The notes beneath the pieces were generated by a model. It worked only from the letters and a program-made list of their open reading frames with translations, was not told the origin of the DNA and ran no database searches. The position numbers and the translations under genes are program-made. Below, in pieces: positions 16,316-21,253 of a DNA stretch of 64,000 nt. Position 1 is the stretch's first letter. The number at the start of each line of letters is the position of its first letter. Source of the DNA: Myxococcales bacterium (GTDB taxonomy: Bacteria; Myxococcota; Polyangia; Nannocystales; Nannocystaceae); assembly GCA_016793465.1 (NCBI GenBank), contig JAEUJW010000053.1, positions 1-64,000 on the forward strand, read 5' to 3'.

Positions 16316-16472
16316 AGGGGCCCGCCGCGCCTCGGCTCGCGCTCGCCGACCGCCGCGACGACGCTGCCGCGACGGCAGGACGGCGCGCCCGGGGCCCCGC
16401 GCGGTGAGCGCGCTTTTGCCCGATCCGCGGGCTATGCACCGGCCTCCGGGTTCGTGCAACACTCGCCGCGAG

Positions 16473-19337
16473 ATGGGTGTGACAGCGGAGCGCGACGATC
16501 CCCGCCTCGGCGTCGTCCTCCGCGACCGCTACCGCATCGAGGGCGTCATCGGCAGCGGCGGCATGGCCACCGTCTACCTCGCCGTCCACCGCAACGGCAA
16601 CCGCGTGGCCCTGAAGATGCTGCACCCGCAGCTCAGCGGCCCCGGCATCCACCGCGAGCGGTTCGTCCGCGAGTCCTACGTCGCCAACTCCCTCGACCAC
16701 CCCGGCACCGTGCGCGTGCTCGACGACGACGTGTCCGAGGACGGCTGCCCGTTCCTCGTCATGGAGCTGCTGCACGGCGAGACCCTCGAGGCCCGCTACC
16801 GCCGCCTCGGCCGCCTCGAGCCCCGCGAGGTCCTCGCCCTCGGCCACGCCCTCTGCGACGTGCTCGTGCGGGCCCACGCGCTCGGCGTGGTCCACCGCGA
16901 CCTGAAGCCCGACAACATCTTCCTGACCGGCCGCGGCGAGCTGAAGGTCCTCGACTTCGGCATCGCCCAGGTCCGCCAGGACGGCCGCAGCTCGGGCACC
17001 CGCACCGGCCACCTCATGGGCACGCCGGCCTACATGCCGCCCGAGCAGGCGCTCGGCCGCCGCCACGCGATCGACGGCCGCACCGACCTGTGGTCGCTCG
17101 GCGCCACCCTGTTCGCCCTGCTCGCCGGTCGCTCGGTCCACCACGCCGACACCCCCGAGGAGTCGGTGGTCCGCTCGGCCACCGAGCCCGCCCCGCCGCT
17201 CGCCTCGGTCGCGCCCGACGTGCCCGCGCCGATCGCCGCGGTCGTCGACCGCGCCCTCGCCTTCGCCCCCGAGCAGCGCTGGCCCGACGCCGCCGCCATG
17301 CAGACCGCCCTCGCCGCCGCTCACCGCGAGGTCTACGGCGCCGGCATCGACACCGCCCAGCTGCCCCGCGGCCCGAGCTCGACCGTCACCCAGCCGATCC
17401 GCCCGCCCGGCGCCGTGGCCACCTTCGCCGCCGCCACCCTCGCCTCCGACCCCGGCCGCGCCCTCACCGTGTCGGGCGCCGAGCACACGCTCGCCGGCGA
17501 CGACGACGAGGACGAGGACGAGGAGCACGAGAACGACGAACACGACGAGCACGACCCCGAGCCGTTCGCCGACGGCCCCGCGCGCGGCCCGACCTCCGGC
17601 TCCGGCCGCCGCGCCCTCTCCGACCCGAACCTCGGCTCCGGCCGCCGCGCCCTCTCCGACCCGAACCTCGGCTCCGGCCGCCGCGCCACCGACCCGACCC
17701 TCGGGTTCGCCGTCCGCCCCCGCGAGGCGAGCCGTGAGCACCCCGCGCCCGCGCCCGACGACATCCACACCGTCGTCGACGCCCCGCTGCCGCCCGCGCT
17801 CGCCGCCTCGCCGCCGCCGATCACCCGCCCGCAGCCCGCCGCCTCGCGCCGGCGCAGGCGCTCGCTCGCGGCGCTCGCCGCCCTCGCCGCCCTCGGCGTG
17901 GCCGCCGCGTTCGCGGCCGGGGCCCGCGACGGCGGCGACGCGTGCACGAGCAACGCCATGTGCGCCGGCGACACCCCGTCGATCTGCCGCAAGGACCTCG
18001 GCCGCTGCGTCCCCCTGCTGACCGACGGCTGCCGCCTGATCGCCGAGCCCGAGGCCGTCGCCCGCGACGACACCTTCTGGTTCGGCGCCATGTACCCCGA
18101 GCGCGAGACGTCCTCGACGTTCGGCGCCGAGGCGGTGCGCTGGGTCGAGCTGGCCCACCGCGACTTCACCGGCCTCGTCGGCGGCCTGCCCTCGGCCCGC
18201 CCCGGCGTGCGCCCGCGGCCGATCGGCGTGGTCCTCTGCGACGACACCGCCGATCACGAGCGCCTCGCCGCCCACCTCGTCGACGGCGTCGGCGTGCCCG
18301 CGGTGATCGGCTTCGGCCGCAGCAAGGAGGTGCTCGAGCTGGCGACCACCCACTTCGTGCCCAGGGGGGTGCTGGCGCTCGCCTCGAACACCGCGGCCAT
18401 GCTCTCGAGCATCCCGCACCCGCCGGGCGAGGTCCGCCTCGTCCAGCGCATGACCACCAGCGCCGCCATGATCTCCCCGCCGAAGTGCGCCCTGATCCGC
18501 GGCGTGCTCGAGCCGCGCCTGCGCGCCGGGCCGCTCGCGGCCGGCAGCCTGCGCATCGCCGTCGTCGGCACCGCCAACGCCTCGGGCACCAGCCACACCG
18601 ACGCCTTCCACTCGGCCCTGGTCGCCTCGCGGCCCGCGGGCGCCCGCGAGGAGCTGCGCCAGTTCCTGCTGCCCGACTCGAGCACCGCCGACCCGGCGAC
18701 GATCGTGCAGCCGACCGCCGACATCGTGGCCTGGAGCCCGCACATCATCCTCGACGCCGGCGCCCCCCAGATCCTGCTGCCCGCCCTCGAGCGCGGGTTC
18801 GTCGGCGAGGCGCGCCCGCTGTACATCTACGGCGGCGTCGACCGCGAGGCGCTGCACGCCGCCGCGGCCGTGCACCCCGACTTCCACGCCCGCTTCCACC
18901 AGATCGGCACCCGCGACAACCCGACCCTCGACAAGGCCAACGCCCACTACCTCGCGACCTGGGGCGGCGACGCCGACGGCCTGTCGCCCACGCCCTACGA
19001 CGCGTTCTACGTGGTGGCCTACGCCGCCATCGCCGCCGGCGACGGCCCCGTCGACGGGCGCACGCTGGCCCGCGCGATCCGCCGCCTCGTGGGCCCCGGC
19101 GCCCCCGTCGAGATCGGACCCGCGGGTATCTACCCGGCCCTCAAGGTGCTCGCCGCCGGCGGCTCCGTCGACCTCCGCGGCACCCTCACCGACCTCGACT
19201 TCGACCCCGAGACGGGTGACGCCGGCGCCGACTTCGGACTGTCGTGCATCGACCCCACCGACCACAAGCTCCACCAGACCGGCGCCCGCTACGACCCCAC
19301 GCGCGACACCTTCACCGGCCCCGCCCGCTGCCGGTGA
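16473..19337 (+). CDS. Ser/Thr kinase fused to an extracellular periplasmic-binding-type sensor
   Basis: A 954-residue receptor-like kinase. Kinase domain about 10-290: P-loop GSGGMATVY, Lys in VALKML, catalytic D143 in [11 protein letters not shown] in LDFGIA, and APE-like PPEQ. An acidic, Asp/Glu/His-rich linker with a repeated [12 protein letters not shown] unit follows, then a Lys/Arg stop-transfer stretch and one TM helix (about 475-495). The outside part begins with a Cys-rich knob ([17 protein letters not shown]) and continues as a roughly 420-residue type-1 periplasmic-binding-protein/ANF-receptor-like domain ([32 protein letters not shown]). The inferred role is to sense a small ligand outside the inner membrane and phosphorylate cytoplasmic targets. 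ATG 16473 is chosen over the frame's first start because the kinase homology begins just after it. Confidence 0.88.
17591..17690 (+). repeat. 36-bp in-frame repeat in kinase linker (2.5 copies)
   Basis: The unit encodes [12 protein letters not shown] and lies in the juxtamembrane linker between kinase and TM helix. Its serines could be phosphorylation sites (inference). Confidence 0.7.
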
Positions 19338-19474: not shown

Positions 19475-21253
19475 ATGCGAAAAACTGCCCTACACAGCAT
19501 CGGCCTCGGCCTCGGCCTCGCCCTCATGACGGCCTGCCCCGGCGACCCCGGCGTCGACACCGACGACACCGACTCGTCGACCACCTTCCCCGAGACCACC
19601 AACGAGCCCGACCCCACCACCAACACGCCGTCGACGCCGCCGACCACCGGCGACGACACGACCACGACGTCGACCACGGCCGGCACCGAGACCACCGACC
19701 CGACGACCACGCCGGACCCGTCGACCACCACCACCGGCGAGACGACCAACACCGTCACCGGCACCGATACGGGCACCGACACCGGCACCGACACCGACAC
19801 GACCACCGGCGGCGTCACGACCCTGTGCGAGCGACTCGGCGGGCCGGGCGCGGGCGGCATCAACGACCTCGTGGTCGACTTCGTGGTCAACCACGTGCTG
19901 CTCGACCAGCGCATCAACGGCTACTTCCTCAACGACGACGTCGAGGGCGGCCCGCTGATCCAGAACGTCACCGACCAGCTCGGCGAGGCCGTCGGCTGCG
20001 AGGGCGTGGTCTACATGGGCCTCGACATGCTGACCGCCCACGCGGGCCTCGGCATCTCGGCCCAGGACTTCACCGACTTCGCCGAGGACTTCCAGGCCGC
20101 GCTCGACACCCACCAGGTCGCGCACCCCGACGTCACCGACGACGACAAGGCCGCCATCATGAACACCCTCGCCGCGCTCGCCCCGGAGATCGTCGAGGAC
20201 GCCGACAACAACCTGACCGTCTACCAGCGCGTCGGCCGCAAGCCCAACATCCAGGCGCTCATCGGCGACCCCAACGCCGCCGAGTCGTTCGTCGGCGTGG
20301 TCGCCCAGAACCCGGCGATCAACTCGTTCTTCGCCAACAGCGACTTCGTCCGCCTCAACACCTGTCTGACCCGCCAGGTCGGCGGCCTCGACGGCCCGAT
20401 CAAGTACGGCGCCGAGGTCGACTCGCCCGGGCCCGGCATCGACGAGGGCGTCGCCGCCGACAACAAGTGCCGCGACATGGTCTCGTCCCACGAGAACCTC
20501 ATGGACGCCGACATGACGACGATCACGGTCGAGGACTTCCTCGCCCTCGTGACCGACCTCGTCACCGCCATGAACACCGCCGGCGTGGCCCAGGCCGACC
20601 AGGACATCATCCTAGGCGCGCTCGGCCCGCTGTGCGACCAGATCGTCGTCGGCGCGGCCGAGAAGAACAAGTGCCCGGGCAACGCGGTCGACGTGGTCGC
20701 CGAGGCCGCCAACATCGCCGGCATGGTCGCCGACGACGCCTACAACGGCACGCTCGGCAGCATGCTGTGCACCAACGTCAACGTGGCCGACGACGGCATC
20801 AACTTCGTCAACACCGTCGAGCTCGACTTCGGCGCGGACGCGACCTGGGTCGGCGACCTGACGGTCAAGGTCGTCAGCCCCGGCGGCACCGCCCTGACCG
20901 TGGTCAACCGCCCGACCGCCGACAACGTGGACTACCCCGACAACGGCACCGGCTGCTGCGGCTTCTCGGCCAACCTCAACAAGGCCAACCGGCTGACGTT
21001 CAAGAACGGCGGGGCCAACAACGCCGAGAAGATGGGCATGGGCCTCACGGACGCCCAGACCGTCTGCCTCACCGACATGAAGTGCGAGTACTTCCCCAAC
21101 CCGGCCACCGACGCCAACAGCACCGACTTCGACGACTTCGTCGGCGAGACGGCCGTGGGCGACTGGCAGGTCTGCGTCGGCGACAGCGGCCCGCAGGACT
21201 TCATCACCGTCGACTACGTCGGCCTCAAGATCAACAAGGTCAAGTTCAACTGA
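19475..21253 (+). CDS. lipoprotein with two truncated-haemoglobin domains and a C-terminal P-domain
   Basis: A 592-residue surface lipoprotein. The signal peptide ends ALMTAC (Cys 21), then a Thr/Asp/Pro linker to about residue 112. Residues about 117-240 read as a group-1 truncated haemoglobin: CERLGG, NGYFLNDD, VVYMGLDMLTAHAGLGIS, DFTDFAEDFQAAL. H189 is at the proximal F8 position. Residues about 248-395 repeat the pattern (VYQRVGR, INSFFANSDF, CRDMVSSHENL with H339, EDFLALVTDL, LGPLCDQIV), with an insertion before the second His. Val replaces the usual Tyr at the B10 position in both domains. The last about 170 residues form a proprotein-convertase P-domain-like beta jelly roll (DLTVKVVSPGGTALTVV ... 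GDWQVCVGDSG). Haem binding and an oxygen- or NO-related surface role are inference; a pseudo-globin without haem is the alternative. Confidence 0.72.
   Translation: MRKTALHSIGLGLGLALMTACPGDPGVDTDDTDSSTTFPETTNEPDPTTNTPSTPPTTGDDTTTTSTTAGTETTDPTTTPDPSTTTTGETTNTVTGTDTGTDTGTDTDTTTGGVTTLCERLGGPGAGGINDLVVDFVVNHVLLDQRINGYFLNDDVEGGPLIQNVTDQLGEAVGCEGVVYMGLDMLTAHAGLGISAQDFTDFAEDFQAALDTHQVAHPDVTDDDKAAIMNTLAALAPEIVEDADNNLTVYQRVGRKPNIQALIGDPNAAESFVGVVAQNPAINSFFANSDFVRLNTCLTRQVGGLDGPIKYGAEVDSPGPGIDEGVAADNKCRDMVSSHENLMDADMTTITVEDFLALVTDLVTAMNTAGVAQADQDIILGALGPLCDQIVVGAAEKNKCPGNAVDVVAEAANIAGMVADDAYNGTLGSMLCTNVNVADDGINFVNTVELDFGADATWVGDLTVKVVSPGGTALTVVNRPTADNVDYPDNGTGCCGFSANLNKANRLTFKNGGANNAEKMGMGLTDAQTVCLTDMKCEYFPNPATDANSTDFDDFVGETAVGDWQVCVGDSGPQDFITVDYVGLKINKVKFN

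What the first reader, a model, noticed from the sequence alone, without database searches (positions are those of the whole stretch)
19475..21253. Secreted lipoprotein with two tandem truncated-haemoglobin domains and a P-domain
The mature protein contains two successive group-1 truncated-globin patterns, each with the proximal His (H189, H339) in the expected DM-x-x-(A/S)H context, behind a lipobox and a Thr-rich linker and followed by a P-domain-like beta domain. Truncated globins are normally cytoplasmic, single-domain proteins. A surface-anchored bis-globin is not an architecture I know to be described. Both domains have Val instead of Tyr at the B10 position, so ligand chemistry would differ from known members.
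Basis: partly seen in the sequence, partly recalled or inferred. Interest (0 to 1): 0.85.

Follow-up and report, generated by a model that had tools for sequence, protein, structure and literature searches.

The report
Cell-surface tandem truncated haemoglobin lipoprotein
This gene encodes an exported, probably lipid-anchored bacterial protein with two haemoglobin-like domains in a row; it belongs to a broad family in the Myxococcota with two to six such domains, which I did not find described and whose function is still a guess.

Summary

The protein belongs to a wider family: of 189 related proteins, 161 have two units, 27 have three to six, one fragment has one. In 427 units, F8 is His in 426, B10 is Tyr in one, E14 is Gln in 400; 12 single-domain relatives have Phe at E14 in 12 and Tyr at B10 in 10. 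An unnamed exported companion gene co-occurs with tandem globins: 29 of 31 tandem genomes, 5 of 346 others.

Most likely reading: a tethered low-affinity haem globin that buffers or relays O2 outside the cytoplasm (inferred). Haem scavenging and surface redox chemistry are live rivals: TonB receptors lie near two arrays, and three relatives carry CXXCH. Haem binding is unmeasured.

The parts
19475..21253 (+). Gene of the 592-aa bis-globin P-domain lipoprotein (P0001)
   Evidence: 117-protein alignment
19475..19537 (+). Signal peptide and lipobox M18-T-A-C21
   Evidence: regex with hydrophobic-stretch rule; 108 of 118 family members pass
19538..19819 (+). Thr/Asp/Pro-rich tether, residues 22-115 (42 Thr of 94)
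19820..20200 (+). Truncated-globin domain 1, residues 116-242
20039..20041 (+). Proximal His189 (F8)
   Evidence: 117 of 117
20216..20653 (+). Truncated-globin domain 2, residues 248-393
20363..20365 (+). Cys297 (E10), proposed disulphide partner of Cys332
   Evidence: 116 of 116; pairing proposed by analogy with the co-varying pair 164/182 of domain 1
20468..20470 (+). Cys332 (F1), proposed disulphide partner of Cys297
   Evidence: 116 of 116
20489..20491 (+). Proximal His339 (F8)
   Evidence: 116 of 117; the exception is P0089
20663..21247 (+). P-domain (proprotein-convertase type), residues 397-591

Best explanation
An exported lipoprotein tethered to the cell envelope by a flexible Thr-rich linker, carrying two group-1-type truncated-globin domains, each holding one b-type haem through its F8 histidine, plus a C-terminal P-domain. 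The distal pockets are apolar at B10, E7 and E11 with a Gln at E14, so they should bind O2 weakly and release it fast; the protein most likely buffers or relays O2 (possibly NO) outside the cytoplasm, together with a co-inherited exported companion protein. Shown by computation: architecture, folds, conserved proximal His, residues of the distal pocket, family, companion co-occurrence. Inferred: haem binding, disulphide between E10 and F1, lipid anchor and location, O2 as the ligand, joint action with the companion. My separate estimates: architecture 0.95, haem bound 0.8, O2 buffering/relay 0.38.
For: Folds of both halves. In 427 units: F8 His 426, CD1 Phe 426, F4 Met 419, E14 Gln 400, E11 Gln 0, B10 Tyr 1. 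In the window protein B10/E7/E11 are V/L/V and V/L/L. Register set by the profile alignment to M. tuberculosis HbN (wild-type row 5ab8): E11 Gln faces Leu, E14 Phe faces Gln. Control: 12 single-domain relatives of the same phylum have Tyr B10 in 10, Gln E11 in 10, Phe E14 in 12. Hydrophobic B10/E7/E11 is linked in print to low O2 affinity suited to transport and storage (PMC11904497 section 4; PMC4720485 passages). Lipobox 108 of 118. Cys164/Cys182: 84 both, 32 neither, 0 single of 116. Arrays of up to six units multiply sites per anchor, as in extracellular multi-domain invertebrate globins (PMC4503718 passages).
Against: No direct evidence of haem or O2. The Cys pair changed only twice on the tree, so its covariation is two events, and the 32 units of loci L120-L133 have no Cys at E10 or F1. 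No O2-related conserved neighbour was recognised; neighbourhoods differ between paralogue groups, and most neighbours were not identified. Three relatives carry a CXXCH stretch, which fits redox chemistry better than O2 storage. TonB-dependent receptors lie near the array in two loci, L116 and L117, which fits haem uptake. Gln at E14 may be a polar distal contact, which would weaken the 'apolar pocket' reading.
Confidence: 0.4

Rival explanations
1. Haem scavenger or store: the tandem globins catch haem released from lysed prey at the cell surface and pass it on; the companion protein takes part in hand-over.
For: Exported, multi-site, in a phylum rich in predators (recalled); companion exported protein co-inherited; a TonB-dependent receptor gene lies in the same neighbourhood in L116 and L117, a few genes away from the array; known surface lipoproteins serve haem uptake in other bacteria (PMC7857515 passages).
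Against: TonB receptors were found in only these 2 of the 20 loci L114-L133, and are separated from the array by other genes on both strands; neighbours were not all identified, so others may exist. Conserved proximal His and CD1 Phe and the proposed Cys clasp fit a resident haem better than a transferable one (inference).
Confidence: 0.22
2. Surface redox enzyme: the globin irons turn over NO, nitrite or peroxide, with electrons from a cytochrome c.
For: P0155, P0156 and P0165, 3 of 189 array proteins, carry two globin units followed by a CXXCH stretch with a downstream MP. M. tuberculosis HbN, a single-domain trHb1, has NO dioxygenase activity (PMC3493545, start of abstract).
Against: Tyr B10 with Gln E7/E11, linked to enzymatic O2 chemistry (PMC11904497 section 4), is missing: Tyr B10 in 1 and Gln E11 in 0 of 427 units. 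No CXXCH in the window protein. No Pfam cytochrome match in the three fusions.
Confidence: 0.2
3. Gas or redox sensor that signals through an envelope partner such as the upstream Ser/Thr kinase (16404-19337) or the companion protein.
For: A kinase gene lies 137 bp upstream on the same strand; a kinase also lies directly upstream in six relatives of another paralogue group.
Against: The window kinase shares only its kinase domain with those neighbours; its C-terminal part has no match among them. Kinases are abundant in this lineage (recalled).
Confidence: 0.12
4. Haem-free globin fold used as a structural or binding module.
For: Pfam cut-off not reached; usual distal-side residues replaced.
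Against: F8 His in 426, CD1 Phe in 426 and F4 Met in 419 of 427 units: residues that contact haem in known globins are kept.
Confidence: 0.06

Closest known systems
Group-1 (N) truncated haemoglobin, subgroup TrHbN-2, e.g. Shewanella benthica SbHbN (PDB 8tls, 8ugz)
   Different: SbHbN is a single domain; here two exported tethered domains, Gln at E14, Val at B10, Cys at E10 and F1 of domain 2, P-domain
M. tuberculosis HbN (PDB 1idr)
   Same: clear homology of the unit profile A3 (E 6.5e-21)
   Different: HbN has Tyr B10, Gln E11, Phe E14 and is a single domain
Extracellular multi-domain invertebrate haemoglobins (Artemia, Daphnia, Barbatia, Branchipolynoe)
   Same: works-like only: exported covalent arrays of globins (PMC4503718 passages)
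   Different: separate origin and 3/3 globins (recalled), not lipid-anchored (recalled)
Latex clearing protein Lcp
   Same: extracellular bacterial globin-fold b-haem protein (PMC5522427 abstract and passages)
   Different: single 3/3 globin core with caps and a Lys distal ligand; rubber oxygenase
Proprotein-convertase P-domain (PF01483)
   Same: fold match and Pfam score above cut-off
   Different: no protease domain in this protein

Membership tests
Truncated haemoglobin, group 1 (N) | 2-on-2 globin fold | tested here: met
   best matches of both halves are group-1 trHb, 116 of 116 and 115 of 116 target residues aligned
Truncated haemoglobin, group 1 (N) | Proximal His at F8 | tested here: met
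   H189 117/117, H339 116/117; 426/427 units
Truncated haemoglobin, group 1 (N) | Pfam Bac_globin (PF01152) at gathering score | tested here: not met
   15.6 bits against 21, first half only; relatives P0119 and P0120 pass at 119.7 and 133.6 bits, five stretches each
Truncated haemoglobin, group 1 (N) | Sequence homology to single-domain truncated haemoglobins | tested here: met
   (both halves above 200 shuffles; second half in two weak pieces); unit profile A3 to HbN E 6.5e-21
Truncated haemoglobin, group 1 (N) | Tyr B10 and Phe E14 as in the single-domain controls (Tyr B10 is not general to subgroup 2) | tested here: not met
   B10 V138, V273; E14 Q168, Q301; 1 Tyr at B10 and 6 Phe at E14 in 427 units
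Truncated haemoglobin, group 1 (N) | Binds haem b | not testable with these tools
   needs purified protein
Bacterial lipoprotein | Signal peptide with lipobox and Cys | tested here: met
   MTAC at 18-21; 108 of 118 family members and 49 of 72 other entries (one of the 72 is my cut piece P0122) by regex
Bacterial lipoprotein | Lipidation and outer-surface exposure | not testable with these tools
   no experiment
Proprotein-convertase P-domain | PF01483 at gathering score and matching fold | tested here: met

The most novel reading that the evidence does not exclude
Myxococcota possess a dedicated two-protein envelope system: a lipid-anchored array of two to six haem globins with a re-built distal pocket (aliphatic B10, Gln E14) and a co-inherited exported companion, a bacterial counterpart of the extracellular multi-domain haemoglobins of invertebrates, handling O2 or another gas outside the cytoplasm.
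Probability: 0.4. Interest if true: 0.88.

Novelty: new variant of a known kind. Interest (0 to 1): 0.75.

Why it matters
Truncated haemoglobins are mostly studied as small single-domain proteins (recalled). A widespread family of exported arrays of them, with a consistent change of the distal pocket and a co-inherited partner of unknown function, would be a new place and arrangement for bacterial haem globins, and offers natural variants (2-6 units; P-domain, DUF4394, fasciclin or CXXCH partners) for testing what extracytoplasmic globins do. My searches of the held library listed no paper whose title or shown abstract start describes it; some searches listed only part of their hits (25 of 266, 12 of 34, 10 of 144), one search listed 5 of 6, and most subscription journals are not held. 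PMC4503718 says, citing a 2001 review, that tandem multi-domain globins are known in invertebrates and prokaryotes; the passage does not say which prokaryotes.

Tried and rejected
Conserved operon with the upstream kinase: rejected; only the kinase domain is shared with kinases beside other copies. The context of 20 Nannocystaceae-type loci gave synteny only within each paralogue group. Companion gene: not in the 64-kb window by six-frame HMM search; no Pfam or NCBIfam family (for one member two Pfam rows far below cut-off), homologues unnamed or 'hypothetical'. Neighbours of the companion in Nannocystaceae (symporter-like and tryptophan-synthase-like, named from recall of the sequence) gave no functional hint. 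Sixteen neighbours of arrays were run against Pfam in two calls, a part of all neighbours: two TonB receptors (L116, L117), a radical SAM protein, sortilin/BNR repeats, a methyltransferase, two trypsin-PDZ proteases, a metallo-beta-lactamase fold, a polyketide synthase, a citrate-type transporter, and six without a match; no common theme. A first control set (best Pfam hits, L024-L033) failed: 1 of 10 aligned to the unit HMM, cause not settled (my frame choice did not reverse minus-strand matches; others may be of another trHb group); it was replaced by 12 single-domain sequences picked for short open frames. A nucleotide search of the plasmid collection found nothing. Phylogenetic correction of the companion statistic was not done.

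Rows dropped: P0115 (fragment) before the 117-row alignment; P0093 (frameshifted stretch); P0092, P0093, P0102, P0113 for the tree; P0122 (cut piece). The counts use the 150 globin rows (88 of 91 genomes) and 36 companion rows that were printed; first-look limits (11 and 6 candidates scored per genome) make them lower bounds.

Full report
What was checked. The ORF at 19475-21253 (+) encodes 592 residues with strong third-position GC (0.985). It opens with a signal peptide and the lipobox M18-T-A-C21, then 94 residues with 42 Thr, then the folded part. Pfam gives a P-domain above cut-off (PF01483, 30.8 bits, cut-off 21) but Bac_globin only at 15.6 bits (cut-off 21), and only in the first half. 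By Pfam alone the globin claim would have stayed unproven.

Conserved residues. In 117 homologues His189 is kept in 117 and His339 in 116; the exception is P0089. Where a source gives an organism, it is mostly Nannocystis, Nannocystaceae or Myxococcales; that the window comes from such an organism is an inference from those relatives.

A family of globin arrays. Searching with the relative P0119 (762 aa; Bac_globin 119.7 bits, five stretches) brought in more. A unit HMM counts, in 189 proteins, two units in 161, three in 13, four in 6, five in 7, six in 1 and one in 1 fragment. In 427 units F8 is His in 426, CD1 Phe in 426, F4 Met in 419, E14 Gln in 400 (Phe 6), E11 Gln in 0; B10 is Val 204, Leu 97, Ile 79, Phe 20, Ala 13, Tyr 1, other letters 10, gap 3. 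E10 and F1 are both Cys in 391, neither in 33, one only in 3. A further set of arrays with two or three units (32 units in loci L120-L133) keeps F8 His 32, E14 Gln 31 and aliphatic B10 32, and has no Cys at E10 or F1. Twelve single-domain relatives in the same phylum, by contrast, have Tyr B10 in 10, Gln E11 in 10 and Phe E14 in 12. The register is supported by the profile alignment to M. tuberculosis HbN (E 6.5e-21 for 1idr), where E14 Phe faces the Gln. Topological labels for the family come from this alignment and recalled globin numbering.

Cysteines. In domain 1, Cys164 and Cys182 are both present in 84, both absent in 32, never single (116 rows); on the tree each changed twice, together. 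The window protein lacks the domain-1 pair (N164, G182) and has C297 and C332 in domain 2. A disulphide from helix E to the F region, closing the haem mouth, is a proposal.

Partner modules. Besides the P-domain, 31 of the 120 rows listed carry DUF4394 (PF14339); P0160 has a fasciclin domain, P0125 DUF4399 and five globin units. P0155, P0156 and P0165, 3 of 189 array proteins, end in a stretch with CXXCH and a later MP, which looks like a small cytochrome c; one search gave no Pfam cytochrome row, so this rests on the motif.

Companion gene. Twelve of 20 loci with arrays (L114-L133) also hold, beside the globin gene or about 1.2 kb from it, an exported-looking protein family with no Pfam or NCBIfam assignment. 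In a sample of 377 Myxococcota genomes, 31 show tandem units in the printed rows; 29 of these have the companion, 5 of the other 346 do (Fisher 6e-36, not corrected for relatedness). It lies within 2 kb of a globin unit in 20 genomes, on the same strand in 18. In the family of genome G001 (29 genomes), the companion is in 11, the same 11 that have a full-length match to the window protein; three more genomes (G003, G023, G029) have only partial matches and no companion. In those 11 the companion is beside the globin only in G010, in convergent orientation (contig ends limit some of these loci). It is not in the window, whose genome is not held.

Neighbourhoods. Conserved order is seen within paralogue groups of the Nannocystaceae-type loci, not between them. 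Of 16 neighbours of other arrays run against Pfam, two are TonB-dependent receptors, in L116 and L117, separated from the array by other genes.

How it most likely works. An exported haem protein on a tether whose distal pockets are apolar at the positions that normally hold O2 tightly. Hydrophobic B10/E7/E11 is tied in print to low O2 affinity suited to transport and storage (PMC11904497 section 4), and fast off-rates were computed for highly hydrophobic pockets (PMC4720485 passages). I therefore favour O2 buffering or relay outside the cytoplasm, at about 0.4, above haem scavenging (0.22), surface redox chemistry (0.2), sensing (0.12) and a haem-free role (0.06). The cytochrome-like fusions and the two TonB receptors are the best arguments against my choice.

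Novelty. The domain is a known kind; export behind a lipobox, tandem repetition, the Gln E14 pocket and the co-inherited companion make a new variant. Ten searches of the held open-access library listed no description, some of them as part lists; I saw titles and abstract starts, and for six papers (PMC1457004, PMC4503718, PMC7857515, PMC5522427, PMC4720485, PMC11904497) passages or one section.

Noticed in passing
L114-L133 and 377-genome sample: An unnamed exported-looking protein family (about 230-300 aa) co-occurs with and often sits beside tandem-globin genes.
   Followed up: partly
P0155, P0156, P0165: Bis-globin proteins with a C-terminal CXXCH and later MP, resembling a mono-haem cytochrome c.
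   Followed up: partly
P0134: 776-residue protein with six globin units; also a Protoglobin row at 26.6 bits, cut-off 25.
   Followed up: no
L126:6166-6837, L127:5688-7232, L133:4656-6101: Companion proteins preceded by or fused to a domain that resembles NrfJ-like OB-fold lipoproteins (recalled; no Pfam hit for the L126 and L127 ones).
   Followed up: no
L116:664-3564 and L117:13098-16001: TonB-dependent receptor genes in the neighbourhood of two related globin arrays.
   Followed up: partly
window 16404-19337 (+): Ser/Thr kinase whose C-terminal part reads like a type-I periplasmic binding protein (recalled resemblance; no Pfam row); 137 bp upstream of the globin gene.
   Followed up: partly
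G001, G010, G011, G014-G018, G020: Two or three diverged full-length bis-globin paralogues in several genomes of this family.
   Followed up: partly
P0145 and 30 other rows: Two-unit globin proteins that also carry DUF4394.
   Followed up: no
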